IMG/VR virus record: IMGVR_UViG_3300027791_003052
Coordinates: 1-59,595 of that record
Strand: one strand, 5' to 3'
Source: a virus
DNA length: 59,595 nucleotides
The notes under the pieces are model-generated. The model was not told the origin of the DNA. It saw only the letters and a program-made list of their open reading frames with translations, and searched no databases. A program made the translations under genes and the position numbers. Positions 36,101-55,952 of this stretch are shown here, piece after piece; within the stretch, counting starts at the first letter, position 1, and each line of letters begins with the position of its first letter.

Positions 36101-37282
36101 TTAAATTAAACTTATTTGTTTTGGTTGTTTATAATTTAATTCATTATAAACAAATTTCTGAGATTTTATTATGTCGTAATTTCTTTCAATGTTACGATGA
36201 TTTAACATATAATATTCTCGTAATTCATTTTTACTTATTTTATTTATAATATCCAAATTAGATTTGTATTGTTGTACAATCCCCTCTGGTGTGTTTTTTG
36301 TTGATAGTTCAAATAAATCAGTTGCCATCCAAAATCCTAAGTCTATAAGATATGCATTTATTCCAGAATTTCCAAGTATCAATGGTATATTGTGTGATAA
36401 AAATGGATTCCAAGCCTTTTCACTTAAATGAATTTCCGGTTGATTTACTGTTTCAATTCCGTCTGAACCTATGTGTCTTTCAGTACTACCATGAATAGAT
36501 GTTTCTAAAATACAACTAACATAACTATTCAGACAATATGGAAATGGTGGTATTTGTGGGTTTACATTCCCCTCCATAGATAGTTCAATTGGAGTATCCA
36601 ATATGGTAGGTATGTTTTCCTTTTTCCATTTTTTCAAAGGATCACTCAATATTGAGTCATCATATGTTGAACAAAATGCACTATATGCCAAATACGAACT
36701 TTTATCTAATCCAATATTATGAGTATATTTAAATACCTCAAATCGTTCTTTTTTATCTACACCGATTATCATATTCATTTTCTTCTCTCGAATATTATGC
36801 ATAAATGGTCTGATGATTTCTGGTATACTATCAAAGTATGATTCTTTGGAAGCTCGGTATCTATAATAATTAAAATTGTTTCTAACAGAATTATTTTTAT
36901 TTACCTCAAATCGATTTGAAAAAAAAGTATAATTATTAGTATCGGCATAGGTTTTAAAGTTATCATCATCCACAGCTACCAGTTTTATCCCATATCGTTC
37001 ACCAAGAGTTGTAAGATAGAATTCGATTGATATTCGATCTTCCATCTCTAGATACATAATATCGAACATAATAACATCCATTGGTTTTGGATTTATTTCT
37101 TTAATATGTTGTTCGAATGCATCTTGATATGGAGGTTGTTTTGAATTTAATGTTGCAGATTCTATTGCCTTTTTATCGGAAGATTCCCAATATGTAACAT
37201 CTTTTGGAGATTTAAAATTGATTAAATCATACCAAGCAACATAACCTCCTTTTTTTATATGATGTGTAATTATATAAATCAT
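36101..37282 (-). CDS. GT10-like glycosyltransferase relative in the replication block (paralogue 4)
   Basis: The 393-residue protein has a late signature, ILETSIHGSTERHIG, then a 14-residue insert, IHLSEKAWNPF, IPLILGNSG and LIDLGFWMATDLFE, that matches the ET...SEK...G...LGF order of the three cassette copies but diverges in detail. Its start overlaps the primase gene by ATGA, so it travels with DNA replication genes rather than glycan genes. A GT-B transferase is my best guess. Base or DNA glucosylation would be a tempting alternative given its position, but no motif supports that. Confidence 0.55.
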   Translation of the reverse strand: MIYIITHHIKKGGYVAWYDLINFKSPKDVTYWESSDKKAIESATLNSKQPPYQDAFEQHIKEINPKPMDVIMFDIMYLEMEDRISIEFYLTTLGERYGIKLVAVDDDNFKTYADTNNYTFFSNRFEVNKNNSVRNNFNYYRYRASKESYFDSIPEIIRPFMHNIREKKMNMIIGVDKKERFEVFKYTHNIGLDKSSYLAYSAFCSTYDDSILSDPLKKWKKENIPTILDTPIELSMEGNVNPQIPPFPYCLNSYVSCILETSIHGSTERHIGSDGIETVNQPEIHLSEKAWNPFLSHNIPLILGNSGINAYLIDLGFWMATDLFELSTKNTPEGIVQQYKSNLDIINKISKNELREYYMLNHRNIERNYDIIKSQKFVYNELNYKQPKQISLI

Positions 37283-38220
37283 AATCCTTTTAATTTTTGT
37301 GATATAATATCACTAAATCCTGTTTGTTTGGATTCTTTTAATTTATTATTTACTTCTGTGAATCCCATATCAGCTGCATCTTTACCTGTTGGAATAATAT
37401 TTTTTGTAGTAATACCTTGATTTTGGAATTGCATTGTATAATGTAAGGCCTGTCCTTGGGCATCTTCATCTAAAAATATATTTATGGATTTTACTCCCTT
37501 TTTATATATATTTTCATTTAATTTTTTAGGTATAAATTTACCAAGTATAGGAATTGCATTTCGTTTAACTGCCATTGCATCAAATACACCCTCTACTAAA
37601 GTTATAGGCTCATCCCAATTGATTTGGTTTTCAAACATTATAACATTCTTAGAAACAGGTGGATTCTTGTATTTAAATGGTTCATCTGGAAATACAGAAC
37701 GTGCAATAAAGTAATTAATTCTATTATCCATATCATAAGAAGGAATGATAATACGACCTGCATAGTGTCCTCCATCACAATAACCAATGTTATATCTTCT
37801 GATATCTTCTGTACTAAGATTACGTTGTTTTGCGTATTCAGCCACTCTCTTGTATGTAGGATTAAACCCAACAGGCACCTTTAGTAATGATTTAAATTCA
37901 CTTGGTAATCTCAGTTCTACCTTTTCATCTTCATTGTTATCGGAATATACAATATAATCATCTCCATAAATTTCATATACCTTCTTTAACTTATGTGAAC
38001 TTACATTGAGTCTTTTTAATAATCGTTGTATTCGTTTTCCCTTTGCATCACATACCCAACAATGCCATTGCTGTGTAGTTAAGTTAATTTGTAATTTTTT
38101 CTTATGGTGATGACAAAATGGACAATGATGTGCTTGTTCATCGTTTTTCATTGATGTACCAATCCCTAAAGTATCATTTAATATATTAATAACCTCTTGT
38201 CTTTCGTGGTGTGAAAGCAT
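37279..38220 (-). CDS. DNA primase with zinc ribbon and Toprim domain
   Basis: The 313-residue protein has a CPFC...CWVC zinc ribbon (Cys33/36 and Cys54/57), a middle linker region and a Toprim nuclease-fold domain with ITLVEGVFDAMAV (the catalytic Glu of Toprim) and IFLDEDAQGQAL (the Asp-x-Asp-type acidic pair). It lacks a helicase domain, so it resembles stand-alone primases such as T4 gp61 or a bacterial DnaG core. It would make RNA primers for lagging-strand synthesis. Two tandem host-type promoters lie directly upstream, suggesting early expression of primase, paralogue 4 and the recombination fusion. Confidence 0.88.
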   Translation of the reverse strand: MLSHHERQEVINILNDTLGIGTSMKNDEQAHHCPFCHHHKKKLQINLTTQQWHCWVCDAKGKRIQRLLKRLNVSSHKLKKVYEIYGDDYIVYSDNNEDEKVELRLPSEFKSLLKVPVGFNPTYKRVAEYAKQRNLSTEDIRRYNIGYCDGGHYAGRIIIPSYDMDNRINYFIARSVFPDEPFKYKNPPVSKNVIMFENQINWDEPITLVEGVFDAMAVKRNAIPILGKFIPKKLNENIYKKGVKSINIFLDEDAQGQALHYTMQFQNQGITTKNIIPTGKDAADMGFTEVNNKLKESKQTGFSDIISQKLKGL

Positions 38221-38239
38221 ATTTTATCTTTTAATAATA

Positions 38240-38270
38240 CAAATATACGAAATTAAATCCATATATCCAA
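38240..38270 (-). promoter_or_regulatory. Bacteroidetes-type promoter, proximal
   Basis: In the coding direction TTG (38268-38270), a 20-base spacer and TATATTTG (38240-38247) match the Bacteroidetes sigma-factor consensus TTG at -33 with TAnnTTTG at -7. The -7 box ends about 20 bases before the primase ATG at 38220. Confidence 0.62.
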
Positions 38271-38350
38271 GTCTTTTCTTGATTATTTTTATATCCAAAG
38301 AAAAGTTCATTTATTTTTAAATTAACAAACTATTAGTTTGGGTTTATAAA

Positions 38351-38381
38351 CAAATATACGAAATTAATTTGTAATATCCAA
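38351..38381 (-). promoter_or_regulatory. Bacteroidetes-type promoter, distal
   Basis: TTG (38379-38381), a 20-base spacer and TATATTTG (38351-38358) repeat the proximal promoter in arrangement and exact box sequence. It overlaps the end of the GIY-YIG-like gene. Confidence 0.6.
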
Positions 38382-38828
38382 GTCTTTTCTGAAAAACTTT
38401 CCTAATAAGTTATCGTTTAATGCTAATTCATCAGCTAATACATTATGTGAAAACTGTTCTTGTAACTCATAATAAGTTAAAGATTTCTTATTTCCACAAA
38501 ATTTAAGTATTTTTAATTCAAGTCTATCATTAGCCGTTAGATACGGTCTTCCATCCTTATCAAACCAACCACTAACGATTTTGTTTGAGGAACGATAATC
38601 TACCCAATTAGATTCTTTGGTAACCATTTCATATCGCTTCATTCTTTTATCAGTTAATGCAGCAGTTTCCTTTTTACCAAACTTTCTCTTACGAGTAGAT
38701 TGTACTTGTTTTTTACCGATGTAATATTCACCAGTTAATCCATTTGTTATTTTGTATATAAATCCATGTGTGCCTTCTGGCATATCATGTAGTTCGTTAA
38801 TTATTTTACCTTGGTAAGTCCATGTCAT
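38364..38828 (-). CDS. GIY-YIG-like nuclease-domain protein
   Basis: I use the start MTWTYQGK at 38828 (154 residues). An upstream ATG at 38849 adds MISKYLT and overlaps the sulfotransferase gene more. GFIYKITNGLTGEYYIGKK is the two-strand GIY-YIG core (here FIY and YIG), followed by a basic RKRKFGKK and a WVDYRSS segment. Such proteins occur in marine T4-like phages, some as homing-endonuclease relatives, but there is no second DNA-binding domain here. Its function in this phage is unknown; DNA cleavage is only inferred. Confidence 0.68.
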   Translation of the reverse strand: MTWTYQGKIINELHDMPEGTHGFIYKITNGLTGEYYIGKKQVQSTRKRKFGKKETAALTDKRMKRYEMVTKESNWVDYRSSNKIVSGWFDKDGRPYLTANDRLELKILKFCGNKKSLTYYELQEQFSHNVLADELALNDNLLGKFFRKDLDITN

Positions 38829-39384
38829 AGTTAAATATTTTGAAATCATCTTGATATCTTTCTTTTACCCAATCGACCATCCACTCTTCTGTAAAGAAGT
38901 GTTTATAATAATTTTCTTGATTTAAAGTTGGATGTGTATCGTAAATTGGATTACGGTTAAGATGCGGAATAGTTGAAGTACAATTTATTTTATTTAATAT
39001 TTGTGTTACATCGTTCCCATAATTTTCATAATGAGCTACGTATGATATTTTTCTGTGTTTCGTCTTTCCCGCATTAATGTAGTAACTTTGGGGGAGAATC
39101 CATTGATGAAATGGATTTGCTTTTTTTAAAAACTCACCAAATGAATAATTGTGTGCTTTTTTTCTAAGCTCATGATTGTAAGCGGATGCGATTCGTGTGT
39201 ACGGATTTCTTACTATTGTAAAAATATAATAATCGGATACATCATCAACCCATCTTATAGAATCATGTCCTGTAATTTGTTGTGTTCCATCTATTCCCCT
39301 AATAATGGAAGATAGTGATGTTCCACCTGTTTTGGGTATATGAATAAATGCCCATTTTTCAGAACTATTTATCAGTAAACTCAA
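38806..39384 (-). CDS. Sulfotransferase (PAPS-dependent, carbohydrate-type)
   Basis: The 192-residue protein has the PAPS-binding motifs of membrane-type carbohydrate sulfotransferases: IHIPKTGGTS (14-23) for the 5'-phosphosulfate and VRNPYTRIASAY (58-69) for the 3'-phosphate. Here it is soluble, with no anchor. The family moves sulfate onto a sugar hydroxyl. It lies away from the main glycan cassette, after the replication genes. Together with the transferases it could sulfate the glycan, altering charge or receptor use. It overlaps the GIY-YIG-like gene slightly. Confidence 0.85.
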   Translation of the reverse strand: MSLLINSSEKWAFIHIPKTGGTSLSSIIRGIDGTQQITGHDSIRWVDDVSDYYIFTIVRNPYTRIASAYNHELRKKAHNYSFGEFLKKANPFHQWILPQSYYINAGKTKHRKISYVAHYENYGNDVTQILNKINCTSTIPHLNRNPIYDTHPTLNQENYYKHFFTEEWMVDWVKERYQDDFKIFNYDMDLPR

Positions 39385-39393
39385 ATTATTGTT

Positions 39394-39576
39394 TTATCGT
39401 GTAACCGAATCAGAGTATTTTTTCTGGTTTAATGTACCTCCTCTAGCAGTTGCTAAAGCTTTGTCATCCTTATGTAGTTTGTTTCCCATGTCTGCAGATG
39501 TAGGAGTTTTATCCTTGCTACTTCCATTTAACTTTGAAAACTCCGAACCTTTGTATATGTCTTCGATTGATGCCAT
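39394..39576 (-). CDS. Small hypothetical protein (60 aa)
   Basis: A 60-residue, Ser/Lys/Asp-rich, probably disordered protein (MASIEDIYKGSEFSKLNGSS to YSDSVTR). It fits neatly between the sulfotransferase gene and the next small gene with 8- and 9-base gaps. Its polar, low-complexity nature resembles small virion or tail-associated proteins, but I recognise no family. Confidence 0.55.
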   Translation of the reverse strand: MASIEDIYKGSEFSKLNGSSKDKTPTSADMGNKLHKDDKALATARGGTLNQKKYSDSVTR

Positions 39577-39584
39577 AATTATTT

Positions 39585-39782
39585 TTATTCAGATACTATT
39601 TTTAAACATAAGTCATCATCTCCGAGTGCATCGTAAATATCAGTCCCATCTTCATAAGTATCATATTGAAATACACCTTCTAAATCATTATCTTCAGCAT
39701 ATGATTGAACTTGTTCTAATGTTAGTTCCAAGTTATCTGTTACTATTGATTTGTCTTTAGCTAATAATTGATATAATGCCAT
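39585..39782 (-). CDS. Small acidic hypothetical protein (65 aa)
   Basis: A 65-residue strongly acidic protein (MALYQLLAKDKSIVTDNLELT, then a D/E-rich helix, ending CLKIVSE). An AGGAAAAA ribosome-site-like stretch lies 5 to 12 bases before the ATG, and the motif copy at 39824 lies 41 bases upstream. No family recognised. Confidence 0.62.
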   Translation of the reverse strand: MALYQLLAKDKSIVTDNLELTLEQVQSYAEDNDLEGVFQYDTYEDGTDIYDALGDDDLCLKIVSE

Positions 39783-39823
39783 AATATTTTTCCTTTTTAA
39801 TTTTAGTTTTAATTAAACCTTCA

Positions 39824-39835
39824 CATATAAATATA
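39824..39835 (-). promoter_or_regulatory. Recurrent promoter-like 12-mer
   Basis: TATATTTATATG in the coding direction, between two small intergenic distances: it follows the 39859 gene's stop by 23 bases and precedes the 65-residue gene by 41. Confidence 0.45.
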
Positions 39836-39858
39836 GAAAACTAAATTAAACCGAATTT

Positions 39859-41046
39859 TTATGTATCTAATCTAACAATAAAGTTCATATCGTAATCTGG
39901 TAAATTCTTTATTGGTTGTGGTAATTTTGCTATTGCAATCATATCACCATCTTTATCATATAACCCAATAGTTGTTATATAAGGAGCTAAATATGAACCA
40001 GTAGGGTCAGTAGAAGACTTATTATCATAATCATCCCATGAACCACTTATTGATTGATTAAACGAACCACTATAAAATTTATTTTGAGTAATATCATTTA
40101 CTACTTTTATTTTTTTAGTTCCAGCTGGAATTGAATTGAATACTTCTGTTATTGGAGTATCATAAGAACCACTTAAATCTACATTAACTGCTGAAGGACT
40201 TTGTGAGTAATTAAACTCTCCTGCTTTTGCTGTTACTAAAACTTCTAATTCATTAATAGTTTTAGTTGATTTAAAATTCATTGAATAATCAGTAAATGGA
40301 GTAATACTATCATTAAATACGACCTGTCCCTCTGAATACATTATATTACCAAATCTTAATTGGTCAATATCCAATCCTCCAAAATCGAGTGCAATTAATG
40401 TTTGAATAGTTCCTCGTTCTAAATCTACCCTCATTATATTGATAGTATCCGTATCACCAGCAAAAGTTAATTTAGCTATTCCTACTTCAAAATCAAATGC
40501 AGCAACACCAGGTGAAGACCACAATGTTCCTACAAATTCACCATCATCGGTATCACTTAGTACCATTGTACCATTTTCTAAATCAATTGATACAAGAGTA
40601 TATTCTGGATTTGTAGATGTAATGTTTCCATACCCATCATCACCAAACTCTACATCATTCGTTAAATCTCTCATTATAAGAGATGTTGGTTTTACACCTT
40701 CTCCATATTTTTTTTGAGGAATTGAGATAACATATCCTGTTGCACCTAAAATCCTTTCAAAAGAATCACCAATAGTTTCCATTCTACCATGTAAAGTAAA
40801 TGGGTTTCCAATATCGGTATAGTATTTTGATTTTAACGATTTAAATAAAGGGTAGGTATATAGTTTTTCAATTGTAATACCATCACTTCCGGTAATTTGT
40901 TGATAATTCGCAGTTTCTTTATCAAATGATTCACCAATTGTAAATGAACCTGAGATTATAGGATAGTCTGTATTGGTAACAGTCCAAGTTTTATTAACTT
41001 GAAATGCTCTGCTGGATACGCTCGATTTTTGTAGTGTCTTTAACAT
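39859..41046 (-). CDS. Virion structural protein, probable fibre or collar protein (A)
   Basis: The 395-residue protein is rich in Gly, Ser, Thr and Asp, with long beta-like stretches. Its last 50 residues (YITTIGLYDKDGDMIAIAK, then a LPQPI segment and VRLDT end) match the end of the 41136 protein, so the two share a C-terminal domain that probably mediates assembly. AGGAG lies 10 bases before the ATG and a consensus motif lies 16 bases upstream of the start. Neighbours are structural genes. The exact virion location cannot be told. Confidence 0.65.
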   Translation of the reverse strand: MLKTLQKSSVSSRAFQVNKTWTVTNTDYPIISGSFTIGESFDKETANYQQITGSDGITIEKLYTYPLFKSLKSKYYTDIGNPFTLHGRMETIGDSFERILGATGYVISIPQKKYGEGVKPTSLIMRDLTNDVEFGDDGYGNITSTNPEYTLVSIDLENGTMVLSDTDDGEFVGTLWSSPGVAAFDFEVGIAKLTFAGDTDTINIMRVDLERGTIQTLIALDFGGLDIDQLRFGNIMYSEGQVVFNDSITPFTDYSMNFKSTKTINELEVLVTAKAGEFNYSQSPSAVNVDLSGSYDTPITEVFNSIPAGTKKIKVVNDITQNKFYSGSFNQSISGSWDDYDNKSSTDPTGSYLAPYITTIGLYDKDGDMIAIAKLPQPIKNLPDYDMNFIVRLDT

Positions 41047-41062
41047 ATGGTTTTAACTCCTC

Positions 41063-41074
41063 TATATAAATATA
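41063..41074 (-). promoter_or_regulatory. Recurrent 12-mer beside a terminator
   Basis: Exact TATATTTATATA, 16 bases before the 41046 start and 7 bases from the terminator of the upstream gene, so transcription ends and restarts in one 50-base stretch. Confidence 0.55.
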
Positions 41075-41081
41075 CTAAAAC

Positions 41082-41111
41082 AAAAAACCCCACTTTATAG
41101 GTGAGGTTTTT
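41082..41111 (-). terminator. Intrinsic terminator of the 41136 gene
   Basis: In the transcript direction CCTCACC, loop TATAAA, GTGGGG then TTTTTTG: a six to seven base-pair stem with a U-tract, 25 bases after the stop of the 41136-42362 gene. Confidence 0.75.
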
Positions 41112-41135
41112 ATTTGATTAGGGGGTATTCGTTTT

Positions 41136-42362
41136 TTAGAAATCTAATTTAACTTTAATTAGAACTTCTTTATCGTATGATTTAGGAATCGGTTGTGATG
41201 TTTTAGCCACCGCAATGATTTCATTTGCATCATTTAATAATCCAACTGTTGTGATAAACGTTTTAGGGTCTTTCTCAAATGTTGATTCAGCGAATGAATT
41301 ATCCGAACCAGTTACAAATGTAGGATTGTTAGAGAAGTTAAATTCTCTGTTCGTTGCTCTTATAAAGTAATGTGAAGTAGAAACATTTTCTGTTCTTCTT
41401 GCTTGAAAATCTATACCACCCTTAATAGAGTTGTGTAATAAGAAATGATTTTGTCCTTCACGTGTAGTTCCGTTATAAACAACAGCTCCTGAATTAGAAC
41501 CGCTATCAATTGATGATCCAACTAATGACTCAACTGCAGTTGGGTTAAGAATTACCAAACCTTGGTCTGGATAAAATAAACCAAAACCTCTACCATTGGA
41601 ATCAACCATTGTAGATACTGAAGCTTCAGCTTCTGTTCCTAAGTTTAATGAACCACTTACTACATTAAATACTCTACCAGATTTACCTACTGTATCAGAG
41701 AATTTCTTTCCGCTATCATCAATAAAAGTATGTGTTCCATTAGAACCACTTAATACTAATGACCAGTTTCCTGCATCCATTTTTTCTTTGTAACGTGCAC
41801 GAGCTACATTGATTACATAGATATCATCTGAATCATGTGTCCCAGCTGCTGATGAAGAATAAAATGTAAATTTATCATCATCTTGGTCTAATAATATTGA
41901 TTTGTATTGTGCGTATGTTGCTTTGGATGCTAAAGTAGATGAATCTGATGTTGTTAAATCAACAGAACCACTTGCGTATTTATGTCCATATGCAATTGCG
42001 TATTGTACAGCTGCTCCAACATCACTTGTAGGATTCTTATCATATACATTAACATAGTAGTTTTTAGTTGCTTCTGTTTGTGTAGATGATGTGTAGAAGG
42101 AAGTCATACTTCCAGTATCTCCACTCCATAGACCAGTTGTTACAACTTCTATTTTTCCATTAACTTGATCGAATTCACCAAATCTTTTATAGATACCATT
42201 GGAGATTGAACCTCCCGTTGCACCTAATTTATCACCACCAGATAAATACTGATTGGTGATTTTTAATAATCCGTCTGATGAGAGATTTCCCTGGTTAGCA
42301 TCTAAATAGTTTGCTAACTCTTGGGATAAATTCACTCCTGCTTGTCCTCTTATGTTTGCCAT
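41136..42362 (-). CDS. Virion structural protein, probable fibre or collar protein (B)
   Basis: The 408-residue protein (MANIRGQAGVNLSQELANYL) has a helical start, then Ser/Gly/Thr/Asp-rich beta-type sequence, and a late FITTVGLLNDANEIIAVAK followed by SQPIP and KVKLDF that pairs with the end of the 39859 protein. It ends at a strong terminator. GGAG lies about 13 bases before the start. The context of structural genes and its composition fit a tail-tip, whisker or sheath-associated protein; I cannot narrow this. Confidence 0.65.
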   Translation of the reverse strand: MANIRGQAGVNLSQELANYLDANQGNLSSDGLLKITNQYLSGGDKLGATGGSISNGIYKRFGEFDQVNGKIEVVTTGLWSGDTGSMTSFYTSSTQTEATKNYYVNVYDKNPTSDVGAAVQYAIAYGHKYASGSVDLTTSDSSTLASKATYAQYKSILLDQDDDKFTFYSSSAAGTHDSDDIYVINVARARYKEKMDAGNWSLVLSGSNGTHTFIDDSGKKFSDTVGKSGRVFNVVSGSLNLGTEAEASVSTMVDSNGRGFGLFYPDQGLVILNPTAVESLVGSSIDSGSNSGAVVYNGTTREGQNHFLLHNSIKGGIDFQARRTENVSTSHYFIRATNREFNFSNNPTFVTGSDNSFAESTFEKDPKTFITTVGLLNDANEIIAVAKTSQPIPKSYDKEVLIKVKLDF

Positions 42363-42382
42363 TTTATTTTATTCTCCGTTTG

Positions 42383-43012
42383 TTAGCTTGGTTGTATATA
42401 TTTTATTGTTACTGGAATTGATTGTGAACCACCAGTTTCGTTACCATATACAGTTATTGTTGTTTTTATTGATGCCGTTATATTTGGATTAGGAATGAAT
42501 ACAAAATTTAATCCTGTTTCAATAGATGCGGTTGCTGTTATTTCATCACCTAAAAATGCTGGTGATGAACCTGCTCCTGCTGATAATCCTTCTCCAACGA
42601 TAGAACCTGCGTTCTTGTTTGCCAATATCATAGTATAACCACTCTGTCCATTACCACTTGGTGAAGTTGTAGGGGAAAGTTGTACTTTACCTGAATTTTG
42701 GTTTACACTTATCGATGGGATACCAAATTCTACCTTTGGCATCTTAGTTGTTCCTTTTGGCAATGTTACCAATTTATATCTTAATACTTGTGTTTCATCG
42801 GGTGAAGCTTCCGTTATCGGAATTGCTTTGATTGCCGAATCATAATATGCACTTCCTTTTGGATGTGCTGGTTCGTACAATGTGTAATCTACCTCGTCAT
42901 CACCTAAGGCGAATTTGGAGATATTAAGTCCTTCACCTGCTGCCAACTTCTCTCTACCTTTTTTGGTTAAGATAGCATCGACTGTAATTTCTGCGTTATT
43001 TAAATAAGCCAT
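42383..43012 (-). CDS. Virion structural protein (tail-fibre assembly or adhesin type)
   Basis: The 209-residue protein starts MAYLNNAEITVDAILTKKGR and has EKLAAGEGLNISKFALGDDE, a segment I associate with phage fibre or collar attachment proteins, then beta-rich sequence. GAGGAAAA precedes the ATG by a few bases. The consensus 12-mer lies 26 bases upstream. It may attach the larger proteins at 39859 and 41136 to the tail. Confidence 0.62.
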   Translation of the reverse strand: MAYLNNAEITVDAILTKKGREKLAAGEGLNISKFALGDDEVDYTLYEPAHPKGSAYYDSAIKAIPITEASPDETQVLRYKLVTLPKGTTKMPKVEFGIPSISVNQNSGKVQLSPTTSPSGNGQSGYTMILANKNAGSIVGEGLSAGAGSSPAFLGDEITATASIETGLNFVFIPNPNITASIKTTITVYGNETGGSQSIPVTIKYIQPS

Positions 43013-43038
43013 AATGTATTTTTCCTCTTGTTATTCAA

Positions 43039-43050
43039 TATATAAATATA
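43039..43050 (-). promoter_or_regulatory. Recurrent promoter-like 12-mer
   Basis: Exact TATATTTATATA, 26 bases before the 43012 start. An AGGATTT/AAATCCT hairpin lies just beyond it, toward the end of the large tail gene, and could be a weak terminator. Confidence 0.5.
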
Positions 43051-43090
43051 AGGATTTAATAAAATCCTATAATTTATAAATTATTATTTA

Positions 43091-46000
43091 TCAATCTACT
43101 TCCAATATTGGTTGACCACTTCCTCTTCCACCAGGATTTACTCTTAATGTATTTGGATTCGTTGTGAACGTTTGAACAGGCGAACCACCATCTAAAGTAG
43201 TTAATGATGTTTGTTTTGAACCATTAAAGAAAGAATTTTCCAGTCCTGTTGTTAAATCTGCCACATTTCTGTAATGATATGGTACATACCCATCCAATGG
43301 AACTGCACTTATCGTATTACCAACAACAAGAGATCCACTTTGTGAAAATTCTCTAAAGTTTAGTTTTTTACGATATAATGTTTGTGTTACGAACTCTCTA
43401 CCTTTAGATTCATCATTTGGATCTATGTTTTGTGGAATATCAACGTTATAACTCTCTGTTATAACATCTACTCTTTTTCTTTCTTTTACAAAATTATTAT
43501 CTTTATCTAATCTTGTTATTATCGTATGTCCGTTTTGTGCATATATTGGAAATCCAGCAACTGTTAGTGAATCTACATCCATACCAATTTGATTGAATAC
43601 AGTTGAATCAAATTCTCCAGATTGAGAAGTTTCAAATTGTGCATTAACAGTAATTGAAATTCCACCCATATCCGAACCACTATTTACAGTTATAAATCCA
43701 TATTGGCTTATATCACTACTTGCTACTATTGTACTCGTATATGAATCTTTAGTACCTCCTAATGATGGTGCTATTGACTCTGATACTGTTCCTTCAAAAT
43801 TATTTTTACCACCACTTAGAACCGTAATATCTGATGTAATTAATGTACCTGATATTCCTTCATTTGTAGATTTTACATTAATATCATTTACATCGATTGT
43901 AGATGTATGATTATGTAATGATGCACCAGTAGGTTTTCTATCCACTTTACTTCTTTCAAGTATATGTGGTTCGATTAATATTCCACTTGCCACCTTTGCT
44001 CTTGCTGGTACTAGTGATTCTAATACATCAAATAATGATTTATCTATATATCTAACTAATTGTATATATTCTGATAAGTTTAATTGATATCTTTCAAAAT
44101 AATATTTTCTTAATTTATTTAATTCTGAATATTCTGTGTTATAATCATCAGATGGGTCACCAATATAATCGTCTATTTCAAAACCACCTAATGATTTCAT
44201 AATATCCATATTAATCTCTTTTATAGGAGAGAAAAATAATCCCAATTTATCCGAATCAAGTGGAGCTTGGTCAAATGATTTTTTAGTAGCCCTACTTTTA
44301 TATGATAAATCTAATATTTTAGTTTGAGTTTCAAATCTAACTTTATTTCCACTACTAAATCCACTTGATGGTACTTCTGCCGTTACATCTCTATCATATG
44401 AAACATATTGATGAGGATATTGTGTTATTGAAGTAAAATTAGATGCAGTTGCAAATGAACTATATGTTGTATCTATTGAAACATTCTTAATAGATGTATC
44501 TCCTACCGAACTTCTATCTTTTGGATATTCAAAATCTAATCTGAATATTAAATCTTCAGTAGATGATTTGATGTGATTTCCATTAATAGCTTCTGGTAAT
44601 AATGTATGATTAGAAATAACAGATTCACTCAAAGGAGCAGACCATAATCTAAATTCATCAATAGAACCAGTTAACGTAGAACCACCAATTGTTAATTCAT
44701 GTCCAGTTTCCCATCCATTATTACTACTTGGAACTTTCATAGTACTTGATGTACTATTTCTAATTCTTCCTTGCAATCCTTCTTTTAAATAAACATCAAT
44801 GGTATCTTCACCACTTCCCGTTATTCTGTTAATGGCAATTTGTGTATATTCATCATTAAAGAACGCAACTTGTTCAGTTGAAGAGGATATATAAGTACTA
44901 CCACTTAATATGTTTAATGTTAATTTAGCAAGTGAACCAGATTCAGGATAATCTACATCCAAACTCCATCCAGCCGTACTTATTAATCTTTGGTCTTTTT
45001 TCTGATCTGTATTTAATCTAAATTCTACTGAATCAGGATACTTTTCATTATGAGATTTCCATGGTACTATTATAGAATCACTTCCACTAATATTAATTGC
45101 AGATGTTCTATCCTCGTATGTGAATTGTGTAGTTCTATTTCCAGGTTGTGGTCCACCAAACTCCATTATAGTTAATAATGATTGTGGAATACCATAACAA
45201 CTTAGTGCTGCTGATAACGCCCTTCGTGTACCTTTGTGTTTATGTAAATATGGTAAGTTATTAAGTAATCTTCTCCAAACTTCATTCTGTCTATCTTTAC
45301 CACTCATCTCAGAGGCAATACTACCATCTGAATTTTTACCAAATGCATACTCCCACAAGAATTGTGATTGTACACCCATATCAGCATCCCAACCAAGAGA
45401 TTCTAACATATGATAAATCAATTTATCATTAATTCCGTTTTCGAATTTATGTTCTAATTTTTTAGTTTGTTTGATACCATTAATATGTGCCCACAATATA
45501 TCAAAGTGTTGACCAATCATATCAAAGAATAAAGTAAATGATTGACCTTCTTCATCATTTTGTATATGAGCTGGTAAATTATTAACTAATCTTGATGAAT
45601 TATCTCCATCATGTATTCTTGAAGTTGTTTTTATACTATTATACCAACTGGTTACGGATGAATCATTCGATTCAGATAATGCACTTCCACCAGCTCCAGG
45701 ATATGTCAATCCACTTACTGATGAACTTGTATATAAGAACTTTTCAAATGCATCAAATCCTTTTTTAGAATCATTTATTTTATCAAGAGTTCGTTTAGCT
45801 TCATTTTTAATAGCAACAGAACTTGTAGCAGAACCAGTAATAGTACTCGATACTCCACTTCCTAAATCAATTGAACTACCAGATACTAATCCATTGTATC
45901 TGTTTTCATATGATTGTATTAACTTAACTTTATAATAAAAGTTCTCAACTCGTTCTTCCGCGGAAGAGTATTTTACAAATGAACCCCAATCGATTTCTGA

Positions 46001-48394
46001 AGTACTACTTTCTTCAAAATAATTACCAGTACCATTTTCTACTAAAGTAAGAGATGATGTTACAAAGTTAATATTTAAATTATCTAAAGAATATTCTGAT
46101 GAAGAAATAAATTGATTTACAACTTCATTTGAAGTAGTTGATCCACTTGCAATTAAATCATCTAAAATTTGATAACCAATTACATCGTTTGTTTCTAATG
46201 CGAAATTAGGAGTAAGTGGTGTACAATGTGTAGATATATCATCAACAATAGTTATTTGATCTATTATAGGGATTGCCTGTAATTTTGATAACCAAATAGT
46301 ATCGTTAGTATTTACATTTTTAGGAAGTGGTTCATATAGTTTTAATACTAATGTTTTTTCTTCGTTTATTTTTACTTGTTGATTGGTTTGGTTGTTATAC
46401 TGATACGTTGATAATGTTTCCGTATCAATACCCCATGTAGCTACTAATTTATTATTACCATCCCCTAAATGTAAATAATGAGTTAAGAATGGAGAAATGG
46501 AATCTGTAAAAACATCTGTATTAAATCCTTTAGCAAATGCATTTCTTAAATCAGAAATTACATCCGCTCTTCTTAGATTTAAATCACCTACATCAAATGA
46601 AATACTTATACGTTCTTCCTTACCATCTGTTTTTGAATCTCCCTCGGTATTGGTAGGAATTAATAATAAATTAAACTGCAATATACCATTAACTTCTAAT
46701 GGACGTATTTTTGCAAGATTTAATTTATTTAAAATATCACCAACATTAAAAGATGCAACTCCAATTGCAGGAAATTGTCCTAATGATGAAACAGAAGTTT
46801 TCTTTCCAGCATATATGTTAATAAAGTTGGTATTAATAGATTGCCATGAAATTTCAAATGGAACGTTTGTTCCTTTAAAATCAGCTCCTACAATGTTTTG
46901 TGGATAATTTATAGTAGTAATATCAGGACCAGGTAAATAGGCTTTACTTTCAACTGTTACTGTTATTTTTTCTAAGGTACTACTACCACCCCTATCAGAT
47001 ATTGCCTGTAAATGAACGGTGTAGTTACCTACTCCATTATAGAAATCCGATGTTTTTAATATTAAACTACCATTTGTATCAATTTGTCTTTGTGTATTAC
47101 CAAGAGTGTAAATTACCTTATCGGCATTAACACTTCTATATGGTATTTTTATAGAATTTGAATCTGATATGTTAAGTTTAACACGAGTAATGTCTGCCTT
47201 TATACTTGGTGCATCTGGGGCTTCTTCAACTGCAACCTTAATGGCATTAACTACTATATTGTATTGTCCTCCAGATAGTGGTAAAGTAAATTCCTTTGTT
47301 TTAGTAGTTTTATTACTTCGATTATCTGGTGTATTATGTGTAAATGTAGTGGTGTGGGTAAAATCACTAATACCTACACTTATAAATTTTATAAAAGAGT
47401 TTCCTTTATTATTATTTGGTGTATATTTTAAGTTAATATCACTTTCATCAATAACAAATCCACTCTCACCCCATGAAGTTTGATATTGTATGATATCATT
47501 AGCAGATACATAACCTTCTATATTAACTTTTATTTCAGTTCCACTAACGGGTTCATCATCATCAATAATAACATCATTTAAATCAAACGCTAAAGTAAGT
47601 TGTTGGGTTTTAGTTATAGTATCTGTTATTTTATTTATTTGATCTAATACGGGGATTGATACTCCGTTTTTCTCTAATCTAAATTCATAATAATCATACT
47701 CAACAAAACCAACAATGGGTTGTTGTCTTTTTACATTAGGCTCAACTCCCCTTGAATACCCCAAGTAGTATGAGTCAACACCCTGTCCTGTATTAAACGA
47801 ATCGTTGGAATTAAAGTTAATTCCCATTGAATCTTCACCAAAACCTCGGTAAGTATCACTATCATTTCTGATAGGAATTCTATTGTCTGGTTCTATAAAA
47901 TCATCATCAAATTGTTCAATTAATGGTTTTATTGTTTTAGTGAATTTCTTCTTAGTGGAATATAATTTATATTCATCATTAGAAGTAAATCCACTTTTTA
48001 TTATCTTAAAATATTTAGGTGTTAATAATTCCTTTCCAGTATAATTGAATATCTTAGCAGGAGTTTTTAAAGTATCCTTACCATTTATAAGAATACTACC
48101 ACCTTTGTTTGATGTAATATTAACTGATAAATTTCTACTTTCCGATAATATCTTTGTTTCTTTTTTTATATATGTACAACTTCCATTACTAACAGTTGCA
48201 TTTGGATTATAGTTTGTAGCTGATCTATCCATACAACCACTAATAACTGACACAGTCGTTTTTGTAGAACCACCAGTTCCGCCTCCCCCTCCTCCGCCAG
48301 TATTTCTGACAAGTTCATATGAGTCACCATAGTTTCCATCTTCACCACTACCGCCACCTTCTATTTGGTCATAAAAATTTGCTCTAACTGCCAT
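43091..48394 (-). CDS. Large tail/baseplate protein with a GCMD repeat and a LamG domain
   Basis: The 1767-residue protein has a glycine-rich lead (residues 34-42), one Cys-bounded GCMDRSATNYNPNATVSNG repeat at 53-75, a long series of beta-type modules, a YLHKHKGTRRALSAALSCYG helix region near 1050 and a LamG jelly roll around 1130-1290 (GWSLDVDYPESGS, IGGSTLTGSIDEFRLW). Its size and place next to wedge genes fit a tail or baseplate wedge-associated fibre protein. The start is exactly one base after a motif copy, which leaves no room for a normal leader. Confidence 0.78.
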   Translation of the reverse strand: MAVRANFYDQIEGGGSGEDGNYGDSYELVRNTGGGGGGGTGGSTKTTVSVISGCMDRSATNYNPNATVSNGSCTYIKKETKILSESRNLSVNITSNKGGSILINGKDTLKTPAKIFNYTGKELLTPKYFKIIKSGFTSNDEYKLYSTKKKFTKTIKPLIEQFDDDFIEPDNRIPIRNDSDTYRGFGEDSMGINFNSNDSFNTGQGVDSYYLGYSRGVEPNVKRQQPIVGFVEYDYYEFRLEKNGVSIPVLDQINKITDTITKTQQLTLAFDLNDVIIDDDEPVSGTEIKVNIEGYVSANDIIQYQTSWGESGFVIDESDINLKYTPNNNKGNSFIKFISVGISDFTHTTTFTHNTPDNRSNKTTKTKEFTLPLSGGQYNIVVNAIKVAVEEAPDAPSIKADITRVKLNISDSNSIKIPYRSVNADKVIYTLGNTQRQIDTNGSLILKTSDFYNGVGNYTVHLQAISDRGGSSTLEKITVTVESKAYLPGPDITTINYPQNIVGADFKGTNVPFEISWQSINTNFINIYAGKKTSVSSLGQFPAIGVASFNVGDILNKLNLAKIRPLEVNGILQFNLLLIPTNTEGDSKTDGKEERISISFDVGDLNLRRADVISDLRNAFAKGFNTDVFTDSISPFLTHYLHLGDGNNKLVATWGIDTETLSTYQYNNQTNQQVKINEEKTLVLKLYEPLPKNVNTNDTIWLSKLQAIPIIDQITIVDDISTHCTPLTPNFALETNDVIGYQILDDLIASGSTTSNEVVNQFISSSEYSLDNLNINFVTSSLTLVENGTGNYFEESSTSEIDWGSFVKYSSAEERVENFYYKVKLIQSYENRYNGLVSGSSIDLGSGVSSTITGSATSSVAIKNEAKRTLDKINDSKKGFDAFEKFLYTSSSVSGLTYPGAGGSALSESNDSSVTSWYNSIKTTSRIHDGDNSSRLVNNLPAHIQNDEEGQSFTLFFDMIGQHFDILWAHINGIKQTKKLEHKFENGINDKLIYHMLESLGWDADMGVQSQFLWEYAFGKNSDGSIASEMSGKDRQNEVWRRLLNNLPYLHKHKGTRRALSAALSCYGIPQSLLTIMEFGGPQPGNRTTQFTYEDRTSAINISGSDSIIVPWKSHNEKYPDSVEFRLNTDQKKDQRLISTAGWSLDVDYPESGSLAKLTLNILSGSTYISSSTEQVAFFNDEYTQIAINRITGSGEDTIDVYLKEGLQGRIRNSTSSTMKVPSSNNGWETGHELTIGGSTLTGSIDEFRLWSAPLSESVISNHTLLPEAINGNHIKSSTEDLIFRLDFEYPKDRSSVGDTSIKNVSIDTTYSSFATASNFTSITQYPHQYVSYDRDVTAEVPSSGFSSGNKVRFETQTKILDLSYKSRATKKSFDQAPLDSDKLGLFFSPIKEINMDIMKSLGGFEIDDYIGDPSDDYNTEYSELNKLRKYYFERYQLNLSEYIQLVRYIDKSLFDVLESLVPARAKVASGILIEPHILERSKVDRKPTGASLHNHTSTIDVNDINVKSTNEGISGTLITSDITVLSGGKNNFEGTVSESIAPSLGGTKDSYTSTIVASSDISQYGFITVNSGSDMGGISITVNAQFETSQSGEFDSTVFNQIGMDVDSLTVAGFPIYAQNGHTIITRLDKDNNFVKERKRVDVITESYNVDIPQNIDPNDESKGREFVTQTLYRKKLNFREFSQSGSLVVGNTISAVPLDGYVPYHYRNVADLTTGLENSFFNGSKQTSLTTLDGGSPVQTFTTNPNTLRVNPGGRGSGQPILEVD

Positions 48395-48395
48395 G

Positions 48396-48407
48396 TATAT
48401 AAATATC
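48396..48407 (-). promoter_or_regulatory. Recurrent 12-mer abutting a start codon
   Basis: GATATTTATATA, with one base between the motif and the ATG at 48394. If it acts as a -7 type box, the message would start at or close to the ATG. Confidence 0.45.
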
Positions 48408-48421
48408 CTTATTTAATATTA

Positions 48422-50398
48422 CTATCTCTCTCGTGGAGGTCTATTTTTTCGTATCACTATATCTCCTCCACCAAGGTAACTTCCACCTTGACCGGTAAAT
48501 GATGTATTGTCTTCTATCATATCATCCATTTGACCTGATGTTTGTCCTCCTCCGGTTGTTGATCCAACTGATACAATCGGTATTGATACCGGTGGTGGTG
48601 GTGTTGGTTTACCAACAACCGGTGGTTTCGGTTTTGGTGGTGGTGGTATTGGTTTAATAACAACAACCGGTGGTATCGGCCTTTTTGGTATTGTAACACA
48701 AGGTCCTAACTCAATACATACAATACCAGGTCCTTTTGATATCGAACCTCTTTGTGCACAAATTGTTGTTGTATCACCTGGAAGTAAATTACTTGATGTT
48801 TTAGTATTACCAACTGCATCTTTATAAGTTACCGATAAGGGAAAGCTTTCCCTTGTTGTATCATACCATGGGTTGGGTACAGTTTTACCTGCTCCATAAT
48901 TATTATTATAGCTATCTGTTCCTAATTGATTTTGTCCATAATAATTTGCAATATCGTTATACTCAGGATATGGTTTTGTAAGTAATGGAAGGTTGTTACT
49001 ATTTTTAACAATATACATACGAGTAGATGCTATTTTATCAGGCTTGGGTACTTCCCTAACATCATTTGTCCATTTAATCGAACCAACATCATGTTTGATA
49101 TTAAACGAATCATACATCTTTCCGTTAACAGGTGTTTGGATTTGTCCGTTTAATTTCCATTTAATATTTGCAGTTGAAGACCAAATATAATACTTTTTAG
49201 ATACACTTTCAATTACACCCTCATATTTACAACTTCCATTATCAGAAGTAGCGTTTGGATTGAAATTAAGTGCACTTGAATCAGTACATCCTTCGATTTC
49301 TTCTTCCTCAACAATCACTTCCTTATATGTACAACTACCGTCGTTATCTTGAGCCAATGAATTATAATTTTCAGCTTTTGGATCTGTACAACCTCGTACT
49401 CGTGCATTTACCTTATCTGGAACAGTAGAAGTGTATATTGAATTAGATGTGGTTGATTTTAAAATTTGACTAACCTTATCAAGTGTAATTTGCTCTTCTT
49501 TAGATAATATATTATCTTTCTGTATATCTCGTTTTGGTAAATAGAAATCAATACAATTAATCAAAGATGATTGTGCATCTTGTAATAGTTGTGCTATTGA
49601 TAAATCAATACAATCTGTTTTATCTCCATTTGGGTTACCATAATTTATATCATTAATACTCCAATTTTTATTTGATGCGTAATAGTTCATAGATTCAATA
49701 AACTTTGTTTTGATTCTATGTAATAAAACTTCAAAGCTTTCTATATTGAATTCTTTTTTAATTAAATTAATATAATCAACTCCATCTTTTTCCTTACCTT
49801 TGGAAAATAAAAAGTTTTGAAGAATTTCTTCCAATTTCAATCCCTCTATAAAAACATTTACATAATAAATCACATCATCTCTAAACGTTTCGTTTTCAAG
49901 AAATACATCCAATCGTTTTTCTAAATCTTTATTTTTCTTTTTAGCTCTATTTGGTAAAACTCTAATTTCTGTTCTTGATGGTGAAATTTCATGTATCCAT
50001 AAATTATCACCTTCAATTGAATCAACACCCACTCTTCTGTTTAAAAGAGTTACTTGTGTTTTAAATATTCCGTTTGAATACCCAGCTTCTCTAATTAATT
50101 TTTCAATATCTACTATAAATTCGGTTGTTCCGTTTTTCTTTTTTGTTTGGGAATTATCTGATATTATAAAATATTCAGATATATTAACATCATCAATATA
50201 AATGTATCGTACCAATTTACCATCATCCCCTTGTGGTAGTTGGTTTTCACTTGAATCAAATAAAATAAATTCGATCATATCAGAACAACCCAACCCAAAG
50301 TTAGATTTAGATATTTCTTTTTCAAATACCTTTCTATCCTCAGAGTCAACCTTGTACCCTTTTCTATCGATTATGTCTTTAAATCCTTTTATAGCCAT
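48422..50398 (-). CDS. Virion protein with two GCTD-type repeats and a proline-rich tail
   Basis: The 658-residue protein has an N-terminal domain of mixed alpha and beta (MAIKGFKDIIDRKG), a coiled segment near 230-290, then two Cys-bounded repeats, GCTDPKAENYNSLAQDND (about 333-355) and GCTDSSALNFNPNATSDN (about 369-391), and a C-terminal Pro-rich low-complexity region (PPPPKPKPP-type). The repeats bind calcium or form small disulfide modules in other proteins. GGATAAGAA lies just before the ATG. It is probably a tail or baseplate decoration protein. Confidence 0.72.
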   Translation of the reverse strand: MAIKGFKDIIDRKGYKVDSEDRKVFEKEISKSNFGLGCSDMIEFILFDSSENQLPQGDDGKLVRYIYIDDVNISEYFIISDNSQTKKKNGTTEFIVDIEKLIREAGYSNGIFKTQVTLLNRRVGVDSIEGDNLWIHEISPSRTEIRVLPNRAKKKNKDLEKRLDVFLENETFRDDVIYYVNVFIEGLKLEEILQNFLFSKGKEKDGVDYINLIKKEFNIESFEVLLHRIKTKFIESMNYYASNKNWSINDINYGNPNGDKTDCIDLSIAQLLQDAQSSLINCIDFYLPKRDIQKDNILSKEEQITLDKVSQILKSTTSNSIYTSTVPDKVNARVRGCTDPKAENYNSLAQDNDGSCTYKEVIVEEEEIEGCTDSSALNFNPNATSDNGSCKYEGVIESVSKKYYIWSSTANIKWKLNGQIQTPVNGKMYDSFNIKHDVGSIKWTNDVREVPKPDKIASTRMYIVKNSNNLPLLTKPYPEYNDIANYYGQNQLGTDSYNNNYGAGKTVPNPWYDTTRESFPLSVTYKDAVGNTKTSSNLLPGDTTTICAQRGSISKGPGIVCIELGPCVTIPKRPIPPVVVIKPIPPPPKPKPPVVGKPTPPPPVSIPIVSVGSTTGGGQTSGQMDDMIEDNTSFTGQGGSYLGGGDIVIRKNRPPRER

Positions 50399-50401
50399 TT
50401 C

Positions 50402-51742
50402 TTATCCTTTATTTTTTCTAATCTTCCAAGTAAGTCCTTCTTGTTTTAAGTTACCAGTACCATCTTCAAACTCAACTTCTATTTTAAATTTACCGGTATA
50501 ATCTCTGGCTTTGTTTCCCCAACGCTTTGGTTTTGGATTGTTCTTACCTCCGATTGATTTTCTAAAGAAAAATGGTATTTCTTGAGTTGCACCCTGTTCA
50601 ATGTTAGCATTAGCGGATGGTTTCAATGATGAATCAGAACCAAATCCCATTATAGGACCTATTCCACCAGCATCGGTAACTGTTAGTTTAACTTTAGTTA
50701 TTTTTTTACCATCATCTCTAAGATTTTGTATTTTTATAAAACCACCCTTTCCACTTTGTGGATTTTTCCTAGAAGTTGTCCATGAAGCATCAAACCCAGT
50801 CCAATCAGCTGGTTTATCTTTTATAACTCCCCAATATGCTTCATTACCTGTAAATGGTGTTAAACCACTTGCTGCAGCTGCTGTTTCTGCGGCAACTCCC
50901 GATACTTGACTTGTAAGTTGGTTAGTAATTGCTTTCTGAACTTCTAAAAGTTGTTGTAATGTTTTCTTTTGTGCCTGTAATCCTCGGACTTGTGCATTTA
51001 GAGAAACCCTCTCTACTCCCTCCTTACTACCTGCTATAACTGCGTTTTGAAAATCAGATAATAATGTAGTAAATCTGTTATTCGCAACTTGTGTTTCATT
51101 TTGAGCAGAAGCTTCTTGTAATTTTGCCAAATCCAATTGAACTTCCAATTCTGCAATTCTACTTTTTAAACTTTCTATTTCAGAAAGAGCAGTATTCCAT
51201 TTCTGTCTAAAATCTTCTGAAACTTTTACCAATGCTTCGTACTTAGCTAAAAGATCATTATATATTTTTTGTTTAACAAAAGGTCCTTTTTCAGGCTTCT
51301 TCTTTTTTATTAACTCATCGACTTTTACATCTAAGGATTTTTTTAGTTCTTCTTCATTATATTTTGGCTTTTCTATATAACCAGAAGTTTCTCCACTAAA
51401 CTTAGTTTGATTATCATCGTATTCTAACGTTTCTCCATCATCAACCCAATCTGATTTATATCTTGGGGAAATTTGCTTTCCCTTGATTGGTCTATCATTC
51501 CACTTTATTGGTGGTGGGACATCTCTAAACGGTCTAACTTGTTTGTTATTTTTTTTACGTACAAGAATACCACCTGTTTTTTTATCCCTTTGTATTCCTT
51601 TAGAACCTTTCTTAGCAAGTTGCTCTGTTCTAATCTCATCTCGGCGCGGAGGCAATCCACCCTTCATTAAGTCTTGCTTAGGTTTATCAGGAGACTTTTT
51701 GAAAAGTTCTCCTACTTTAAAATCTTCAGGTTTAGCTGCCAT
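50402..51742 (-). CDS. Coiled-coil virion protein
   Basis: The 446-residue protein has a basic, Lys/Pro-rich N terminus (about 1-110), a long coiled coil (about 145-290, with heptad-like LKSRIAELEVQLDLAKLQ) and a C-terminal beta domain (about 320-446; TDAGGIGPIMGFG, KFKIEVEFEDGTGN). The design, with a positively charged end and a globular beta tip, fits an elongated tail or fibre-connecting protein. Two bases separate it from the next gene. Family not recognised. Confidence 0.68.
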   Translation of the reverse strand: MAAKPEDFKVGELFKKSPDKPKQDLMKGGLPPRRDEIRTEQLAKKGSKGIQRDKKTGGILVRKKNNKQVRPFRDVPPPIKWNDRPIKGKQISPRYKSDWVDDGETLEYDDNQTKFSGETSGYIEKPKYNEEELKKSLDVKVDELIKKKKPEKGPFVKQKIYNDLLAKYEALVKVSEDFRQKWNTALSEIESLKSRIAELEVQLDLAKLQEASAQNETQVANNRFTTLLSDFQNAVIAGSKEGVERVSLNAQVRGLQAQKKTLQQLLEVQKAITNQLTSQVSGVAAETAAAASGLTPFTGNEAYWGVIKDKPADWTGFDASWTTSRKNPQSGKGGFIKIQNLRDDGKKITKVKLTVTDAGGIGPIMGFGSDSSLKPSANANIEQGATQEIPFFFRKSIGGKNNPKPKRWGNKARDYTGKFKIEVEFEDGTGNLKQEGLTWKIRKNKG

Positions 51743-51743
51743 G

Positions 51744-52805
51744 TTATAATTCTACGGTGAATGTTAAATCCTTGTCTTCAAAGTATTCAACTACACCATT
51801 TCTATTTATTTTTGTTTCAATATAGTAATCTCTATTGATTTCCCAATTTGTTAAATTTAATTTAAAGAAGTGTCCGTTTGCATCACAACTAATTTTAGTA
51901 TAGTCATCATCGAATGGAATTACCACTTCACCAGTTACTACATCTTTAATTTGATAGTATGTAGTTGTAGGTAAATATTTAACATCTCTATAAGAATATG
52001 TGTTGGTGTAAGTTTTAAGAGGATATTTTTCTCTTGCGAAAACTCTAATTGTAGGTTTACTTCCCCTCTTATACGAAGTTTTTAATCTTTTAAACGTTAC
52101 ATGAATATCATCCGATGCAAGTTCTGTAAGAGAACCTGTTGTATAAGTTGAATCATCCCAACCAATTCTTATTTTAGGTTGGTAAATTGTATTTGTTTCT
52201 TTTGAAAAGAACTTCAATTGTCCATAATCAGTAGTATCATTCTCTTTCTCAGAATCATGTTTCAATATTAATCCATTATTTGGAATTGAACCAGATACCC
52301 AATCTTGAACTGTATTTAATACATTCATTGATATATCAGATGATGAATAAGAAAATGTCTGTGATGCCGATGAACCAGTTAACCACATTCCTCCTTTACC
52401 ATTGTGTGAACCTGAACTTTCTAATGAAGCCGAACCGATTAACCAATTTGATAAAGTTGTTCTTTTATTCCAACTACATCCCTCAATTGATATCACATCA
52501 AATCGAGTTCCAATTCCAACATCCCATGATTGGGAAACAGGATGAGCATGAAGTGTATAATCTGTTGGGGATTCAATTGATTCACATTCTCTAATAATAA
52601 GTTCAGCAGAATGTACAGAAATATCTCCACTTGCATTTGAAGCAGATATTTCATTTGTATTAAATTGAATTAAAGAACGAGAAATATCCTTTAAGTTACC
52701 ATAATACGTTTTAGTTATTTCCAATACCTCATCCCTACCTGTATTTTGGGTAGGTTGTTGTAAATAAATTGTTGAATCTTTTGATGCTGTTACGAAATAA
52801 TACAT
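51744..52805 (-). CDS. Beta-sandwich virion protein, DNRLRE-like
   Basis: The 353-residue protein starts MYYFVTASKDSTIYLQQPTQ with NTGRDEVLEI, then a LIQFNTNEIS strand, a Trp-rich SQSWDVGIGTRFD and W-containing pattern typical of DNRLRE-type jelly rolls seen in secreted and fibre proteins. The second half (about 235-353) looks like an immunoglobulin-type beta domain. It starts at the shared base after the gp6-like gene (1-base overlap). A carbohydrate-binding or connector role in the baseplate is likely. Confidence 0.68.
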   Translation of the reverse strand: MYYFVTASKDSTIYLQQPTQNTGRDEVLEITKTYYGNLKDISRSLIQFNTNEISASNASGDISVHSAELIIRECESIESPTDYTLHAHPVSQSWDVGIGTRFDVISIEGCSWNKRTTLSNWLIGSASLESSGSHNGKGGMWLTGSSASQTFSYSSSDISMNVLNTVQDWVSGSIPNNGLILKHDSEKENDTTDYGQLKFFSKETNTIYQPKIRIGWDDSTYTTGSLTELASDDIHVTFKRLKTSYKRGSKPTIRVFAREKYPLKTYTNTYSYRDVKYLPTTTYYQIKDVVTGEVVIPFDDDYTKISCDANGHFFKLNLTNWEINRDYYIETKINRNGVVEYFEDKDLTFTVEL

Positions 52806-54820: not shown

Positions 54821-54824
54821 TTTT

Positions 54825-55256: not shown

Positions 55257-55272
55257 TTATTTATTCCTTATT

Positions 55273-55920: not shown

Positions 55921-55940
55921 TTCTAATTCTTGTTATCTTA

Positions 55941-55952
55941 CTATAAATATAT
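55941..55952 (-). promoter_or_regulatory. Recurrent promoter-like 12-mer
   Basis: ATATATTTATAG in the coding direction, 20 bases before the 55920 start. The core ATATTTATA is exact. Confidence 0.42.

What the first reader, a model, noticed from the sequence alone, without database searches (positions are those of the whole stretch)
38239..38390. Duplicated Bacteroidetes-type promoter in front of the primase, pointing to the host
Two 41-base direct repeats each contain TTG, a 20-base spacer and TATATTTG. This arrangement matches the Bacteroidetes house-keeping promoter and not the usual sigma-70 boxes. Exact copies of both boxes with the same spacing suggest selection for host-driven early expression. 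The second copy overlaps the end of the GIY-YIG-like gene. It is the best clue to the host in the window.
Basis: partly seen in the sequence, partly recalled or inferred. Interest (0 to 1): 0.65.

Follow-up and report, generated by a model that had tools for sequence, protein, structure and literature searches.

The report
Host-type promoters flanking a cassette scar
In this fragment of a large uncultured phage, two copies of a promoter that looks like the standard promoter of Bacteroidota bacteria sit before the DNA primase gene; comparison with relatives supports a Bacteroidota host and suggests the doubling is the leftover of a small gene that came and went, rather than a device for extra expression.

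Summary
In detail: two minus-strand copies of TTGG-N15-TTCG-TATATTTG at 38240-38270 and 38351-38381, before a DnaG-type primase; chance expectation is near zero. The motif is conserved at the same place in 74 of 80 related loci and recurs through relatives' genomes. Known Bacteroidota phages carry it; T4, cyanophages and Bacillus phage G show no excess. Gut Bacteroidota DNA shows the same 20-base spacer, TT(C)G extension and upstream A-tracts. So the host-promoter reading and a Bacteroidota host are well supported; 'marine flavobacteria' and 'early' are not shown. The doubling is better explained otherwise. The distal copy is embedded in the last codons of the GIY-YIG (segE-like) gene. Loci with no extra DNA between segE and primase have one promoter (36 of 36); most with extra DNA have two or more (33 of 44), often flanking small genes. 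The window's gap keeps 29 nt of a 55-aa gene intact there in three relatives: probably a cassette scar. Other gene gaps in the window mostly carry a different box, TATATTTATA, perhaps a second promoter class. Ordinary promoter, informative locus.

The parts
38240..38270 (-). Proximal host-type promoter: TTG (38268-38270), 20-nt spacer ending TTCG, TATATTTG (38240-38247). Inferred start of transcription about 38235, 15 nt before the primase ATG.
   Evidence: a promoter at -46 to -54 before the primase in 74 of 80 loci; start position inferred from the -12 to -5 box placement stated in PMC9723704
38351..38381 (-). Distal host-type promoter: TTG (38379-38381), 20-nt spacer, TATATTTG (38351-38358). 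Its TTG is a Leu codon of the segE-like gene.
38271..38299 (-). Cassette scar: 28 of 29 nt identical to the 3' end (last codons, stop and tail) of a 55-aa ORF that lies intact between the two promoters in L005, L007 and L010
   Evidence: E 1.2e-7; ORF
38300..38350 (-). Rest of the inter-promoter stretch; matched in full only by the same phage (L004, L051, L054), weak hairpins, no terminator
38364..38849 (-). SegE-type GIY-YIG endonuclease gene whose 3' end overlaps the distal promoter
37279..38220 (-). DnaG-type DNA primase gene downstream of the promoter pair

Best explanation
Both repeats are promoters read by the host's Bacteroidota primary sigma factor: A-tracts upstream, TTGG at -33, a 20-nt spacer ending TTCG, and TATATTTG at -7. 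The conserved one serves the primase operon, which otherwise lies in a block of genes poor in such promoters. The original copy is nested in the last codons of the segE-like gene, so new DNA can only settle downstream of it; a gene that settles there is driven by that copy and must leave a second copy for the primase. The window shows the relic: a small gene between the two promoters has been lost except for its tail. Shown: the motif, its conservation, its host-like features, the one/two copy pattern, the shared tail. Inferred: sigma use, activity, timing, order of events.
For: 74 of 80 loci have the motif with up to 3 mismatches of 16 in 150 nt before the primase, versus 4 of 1600 shuffles. 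In 21 relative contigs TTG-N20-TATMTTTG gives 112 matches versus 10 for the reversed pattern, in the longest contigs mostly on one strand. The spacer is sharply 20 in relatives and Flavobacterium phage immuto and in gut Bacteroidota DNA (113 versus a mean of 14.5), not in Bacillota or Cyanobacteriota. Phages of known host, observed/control: immuto 45/3, phiST 27/2, crAss001 10/1, phi38:1 4/0; T4 3/3, P-SSM2 4/4, S-CAM9 3/4, phage G 11/10. 71 gut Bacteroidota promoters not selected by the query pattern share TTTGG, T-T-(C/T)-G before the box, and A-tracts at the same places. Copies outside segE, free of coding constraint, keep TTG in 26 of 28 and TTTG in 21 of 28. Copy number: 36 of 36 loci without extra DNA have one; of 44 with extra DNA 32 have two, one has three, 7 one, 4 none. 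Tail of the 55-aa gene in the window.
Against: No transcription data. 11 of 44 loci with extra DNA lack a second copy at this threshold. Elsewhere in the genomes gene insertions are no more often at this motif than random gene junctions are (14 of 87 versus about 12-16 expected), so a general promoter-driven shuffling is not supported. A randomly drawn Bacteroidota sample shows only weak enrichment of the core spacing (7, 7, 9 at spacers 19-21 versus 4.2), and the strict pattern hit only 2 of 117 further Bacteroidota genomes. Loci are partly redundant (50 distinct sites of 74). A functional role of the pair cannot be excluded.
Confidence: 0.78

Rival explanations
1. The tandem pair is kept by selection for stronger or earlier primase expression.
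For: Boxes and spacing of both copies are intact in the window; many loci with a short gap and no ORF of 30 aa between copies still keep two boxes.
Against: 36 of 36 loci without extra DNA manage with one copy; the distal copy is pinned by segE codons; the gap holds a gene remnant.
Confidence: 0.25
2. The sites are read by a phage-encoded sigma or activator, not by the host sigma.
For: Phage sites are closer to one consensus (AAAAATAA at -20, TTTCG) than host promoters, and immuto has its own fixed downstream TTTAGGTAT.
Against: The same boxes, spacer and A-tract positions occur in host chromosomes and the boxes in unrelated Bacteroidota phages.
Confidence: 0.15
3. The repeat is mainly a recombination element of the T4 PeSL kind that shuffles genes genome-wide.
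For: Promoter copies flank cassettes before the primase, three copies with two genes in L049.
Against: Outside this site insertions are not enriched at the motif; no terminator stem-loop adjoins the window copies.
Confidence: 0.15
4. The host is a cyanobacterium, since Microcystis phage Mel-JY01 is among the nearest isolates.
For: Mel-JY01 shares primase (37%) and the SbcCD-like protein over its full length (37%).
Against: Mel-JY01 itself carries TTG-N20-TATATTTG just before its primase and 14 genome sites versus 1 control; true cyanophages show no excess.
Confidence: 0.05

Closest known systems
Bacteroidota primary sigma (sigma-A / sigma-ABfr) promoters
   Same: TAnnTTTG box, TTG/TTTG about 20 nt upstream, same extension and A-tracts as in host DNA here
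   Different: In a phage; more uniform than host promoters; upstream copy nested in coding sequence
T4 PeSL elements (mobile regulatory cassettes; Arbiol 2010, Comeau 2014; papers not held, known here from a citing passage in PMC4503421, and recall)
   Same: Host-type promoter copies bracket exchanged genes in a large contractile-tailed phage
   Different: No stem-loop terminator at the window copies and no genome-wide association with insertions
Flavobacterium phage immuto (NC_055915)
   Same: Primase 38% identical; same TTG-N20-TAT[AC]TT promoter class across the genome, one right before primase (TATCTTAAG, overlapping a terminator-like stem by eye)
   Different: 160 kb genome; last box letters mostly TTTA or TTAA; no promoter pair before primase

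Membership tests
Bacteroidota primary-sigma promoter | -7 box TAnnTTTG | tested here: met
   consensus stated in PMC9723704 and PMC7366714 passages
Bacteroidota primary-sigma promoter | -33 TTG/TTTG at host spacing | tested here: met
   spacer 20 in both copies; host spacer peak at 20 in gut Bacteroidota; window copies read CTTG, not TTTG
Bacteroidota primary-sigma promoter | start of transcription at the predicted base | not testable with these tools
   no RNA data
Bacteroidota primary-sigma promoter | recognised by the host sigma | not testable with these tools
   biochemistry needed
T4-type PeSL | host-type promoter in intergenic spacers, in several copies | tested here: met
T4-type PeSL | adjacent stem-loop or terminator | tested here: not met
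   0 terminator-like sites 37900-38900; weak fold, z -1.67
T4-type PeSL | association with gene shuffling across the genome | tested here: not met
   14 of 87 versus 12-16 expected

The most novel reading that the evidence does not exclude
An uncultured clade of large Bacteroidota phages uses a two-class promoter code: near-ideal host promoters (A-tracts, TTGG, 20-nt spacer, TTCGTATMTTTG) for one gene set, and a box without -33 element, TATATTTATA, for the structural blocks, read with the help of a phage factor unlike T4 gp55. The segE-primase junction, where the host promoter is written into segE's last codons, acts as a docking site for small cargo cassettes.
Probability: 0.35. Interest if true: 0.6.

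Novelty: new member of a known kind. Interest (0 to 1): 0.42.

Why it matters
It gives a sequence-only host call at phylum level for a widespread uncultured clade of large phages (252 relatives found by one primase query in IMG/VR), suggests that the 20-nt host spacing can serve as a host classifier for contigs, and marks one junction where gene gain and loss can be read off. It also casts doubt on the host label of one isolate record.

Tried and rejected
Genome contigs: the primase has no relative there, so no prophage or bin evidence for host. Strict pattern by phylum: 2 of 117 other Bacteroidota genomes, 0 of 118 Bacillota, 0 of 116 Cyanobacteriota (the centres, chosen because they match, left out); too rare to weigh. 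The order of the scan is unknown, so this is a biased sample, mostly gut. Spacer-like DNA matches of window 37000-56999 in 395 Bacteroidota genomes: only short matches of the kind chance gives in AT-rich DNA; no repeats around the top four. Ribosome-binding sites: 9 of 36 window genes have an AGGA/GGAG/GAGG motif against 9% of random stretches: uninformative. Genome-wide promoter-mediated shuffling: a first count against random positions looked strong (27 of 130 empty sites versus 3.5) but vanished once the primase site was left out and random gene junctions were the null. UP-element reading of the primase logo: rejected for copies overlapping segE, since those bases are codons; A-tracts hold only for copies outside segE and for other sites. 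T4 gp55 homologue: none in G012, G020, G011, immuto or Mel-JY01, found in S-CAM9 and T4. In the cassette counts all 80 loci were kept. In one search the primase site and 18 of 19 clusters at the L005 primase end were left out on purpose.

Full report
What was checked. The two 41-nt repeats exist as described. On the minus strand, the direction of the primase gene 37279-38220, each contains TTG, 20 nt and TATATTTG. Extended to TTGG-N15-TTCGTATMTTTG, the window has these two sites and no other even with one mismatch; 0.02 are expected. The window is a 59,595-base virus record; contigs of relatives reach 288 kb.

Conservation. The primase query gave 252 relatives in IMG/VR, the best 80 kept. In 150 nt before the primase, 74 of 80 have the motif with at most 3 of 16 mismatches, against 4 of 1600 dinucleotide shuffles. 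In one search (14 fixed letters, at most 2 mismatches) 74 of 80 have it at -46 to -54. The 74 sites are 50 distinct sequences. Of the six without it, four share one junction (L071-L074), where by eye TTG-N19-TATATTAG can be read; L076 and L077 have the motif only at segE. In whole contigs of 21 relatives TTG-N20-TATMTTTG matches 112 times against 10 for the reversed pattern; 19 of 21 have at least one. In G012, 25 of 26 lie on one strand, the strand of most genes, and with the looser box 38 of 58 sites are mostly intergenic in a genome that is 6% intergenic.

Is it the host's promoter? Published: F. psychrophilum start mapping finds variations of TAnnTTTG for the primary sigma, box at -12 to -5 (PMC9723704, passages); B. 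fragilis has TAnnTTTG with TTTG near -33 and B. [quoted passage not shown] johnsoniae (PMC7366714, passages). Here: in 837 kb around gut Bacteroidota matches (query masked) TTG-N-TAnnTTTG peaks at spacer 20 with 113 hits against a mean of 14.5 at other spacers; Bacillota and Cyanobacteriota samples show no peak; a randomly drawn Bacteroidota sample shows only weak enrichment. 71 gut promoters not selected by the query show TTTGG, T-T-(C/T)-G before the box, and A-rich stretches at the same two places as the phages; the phage sites show AAAAATAATT and AAAA there (88 sites; immuto 35 sites). Control phages, observed/control: immuto 45/3, Cellulophaga phiST 27/2, crAss001 10/1, phi38:1 4/0; T4 3/3, P-SSM2 4/4, S-CAM9 3/4, phage G 11/10, uncultured LR756508 11/7, Mel-JY01 17/10 with the loose box but 14/1 with TATMTTTG. 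The pattern is therefore that of Bacteroidota phages. Nearest isolates by primase are the Flavobacterium immuto phages (38%) and Mel-JY01 (37%). Order or family of the host stays open.

Why two copies? In all 80 loci a segE-like gene lies within 3 kb upstream. Its last codons run through TTGG of the promoter next to it (window...GAC TTG GAT ATT ACA AAT TAA, read). Where the segE stop is within 60 nt of the primase, there is exactly one promoter: 36 of 36. Where it is further, 32 of 44 have two and one (L049) has three, arranged promoter-gene-promoter-gene-promoter-primase; 7 have one and 4 none. By distinct junctions, 22 of 30 have two or more. What lies in between differs: a 55-aa ORF (L005, L007, L010), 2OG-Fe(II) oxygenase-like proteins (2 of 10 scanned proteins have a Pfam match), unknown proteins, or no ORF of 30 aa. 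The window belongs to the last kind (L004 is the same junction), but the last 29 nt before its proximal promoter match, 28 of 29, the end of that 55-aa ORF with its stop codon. The simplest reading is a gene that was there and was lost, leaving both promoters. That the shared piece includes coding bases argues for loss rather than for an ancestral empty state, but the order of events was not tested on a tree. Proximal copies outside segE keep the boxes without coding constraint (TTG 26 of 28, TTCG 24 of 28, TTTG 21 of 28), so they are probably functional.

Limits. This does not generalise to promoter-driven shuffling: outside this junction, 14 of 87 insertions have the motif at the empty site, against 12 expected at random gene junctions, and 14 against 16 at either end. 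There is no terminator at the window copies.

Context in the window. Most other intergenic gaps in the window carry TATATTTATA or a near form on the coding strand: 9 exact matches, all minus strand, 1.6 expected, 0 of 100 shuffles reach 9; 12 of 15 TATTTATA sites are intergenic, 10 of them 11-51 nt before an ATG. Relatives: 35/1, 24/3, 31/2 sense/antisense in G012, G020, G011. These gaps precede structural and unknown genes, so a late class is a fair guess, untested. The primase pair is then the only strong host-type site in the window, and in G012 and G011 such sites are scarce in the block around and after the primase. In immuto, likewise, about two dozen such sites precede small genes at 60-77 kb, one is found in 77-101 kb, and one stands before the primase.

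Literature. Searches of the held library listed no paper whose title or abstract start describes this clade's promoters; this is only what those listings show. Mel-JY01 is named in no paper there.

Noticed in passing
window gaps at 767, 20643, 22452, 22462, 32688, 39826, 41065, 43041, 55942 (minus strand): A second box, TATATTTATA (often TATATTTATATA), in most other gaps, 26-51 nt before a gene in 7 of these 9; one-stranded in relatives too. Candidate late-type promoter; no T4 gp55 homologue found by T4 query.
   Followed up: partly
L084 / PP395634.1 (Microcystis phage Mel-JY01), 181986-182016: A phage recorded from Microcystis elabens carries Bacteroidota-type promoters, one just before its primase and right after a hairpin with T-run; its true host may be a Bacteroidota companion in the culture.
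   Followed up: partly
window 41047-41135 and 58968-59066: Hairpin with T-run followed directly by the TATATTTATA or ATATTTATA box: a terminator-promoter composite, seen by eye.
   Followed up: no
NC_055915.1 60-77 kb (L130): About two dozen host-type promoters in tandem, most before a small unknown gene, many with a fixed TTTAGGTATCAATAATTA start region.
   Followed up: partly
L006, between segE and primase: A 34-aa ORF begins MGKN like the 251-aa gene at the same place in L014, possibly another cassette remnant (by eye).
   Followed up: no
G012 and G020 promoter sites (L087-L116): Last bases of the -7 box fall into three kinds, TTTG, TTTA and TTAG, with different downstream starts, perhaps sub-classes.
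   Followed up: no
window 38364-38849: PHROG 447 calls this family NAD synthetase, Pfam calls it SegE GIY-YIG; the PHROG name looks wrong.
   Followed up: no
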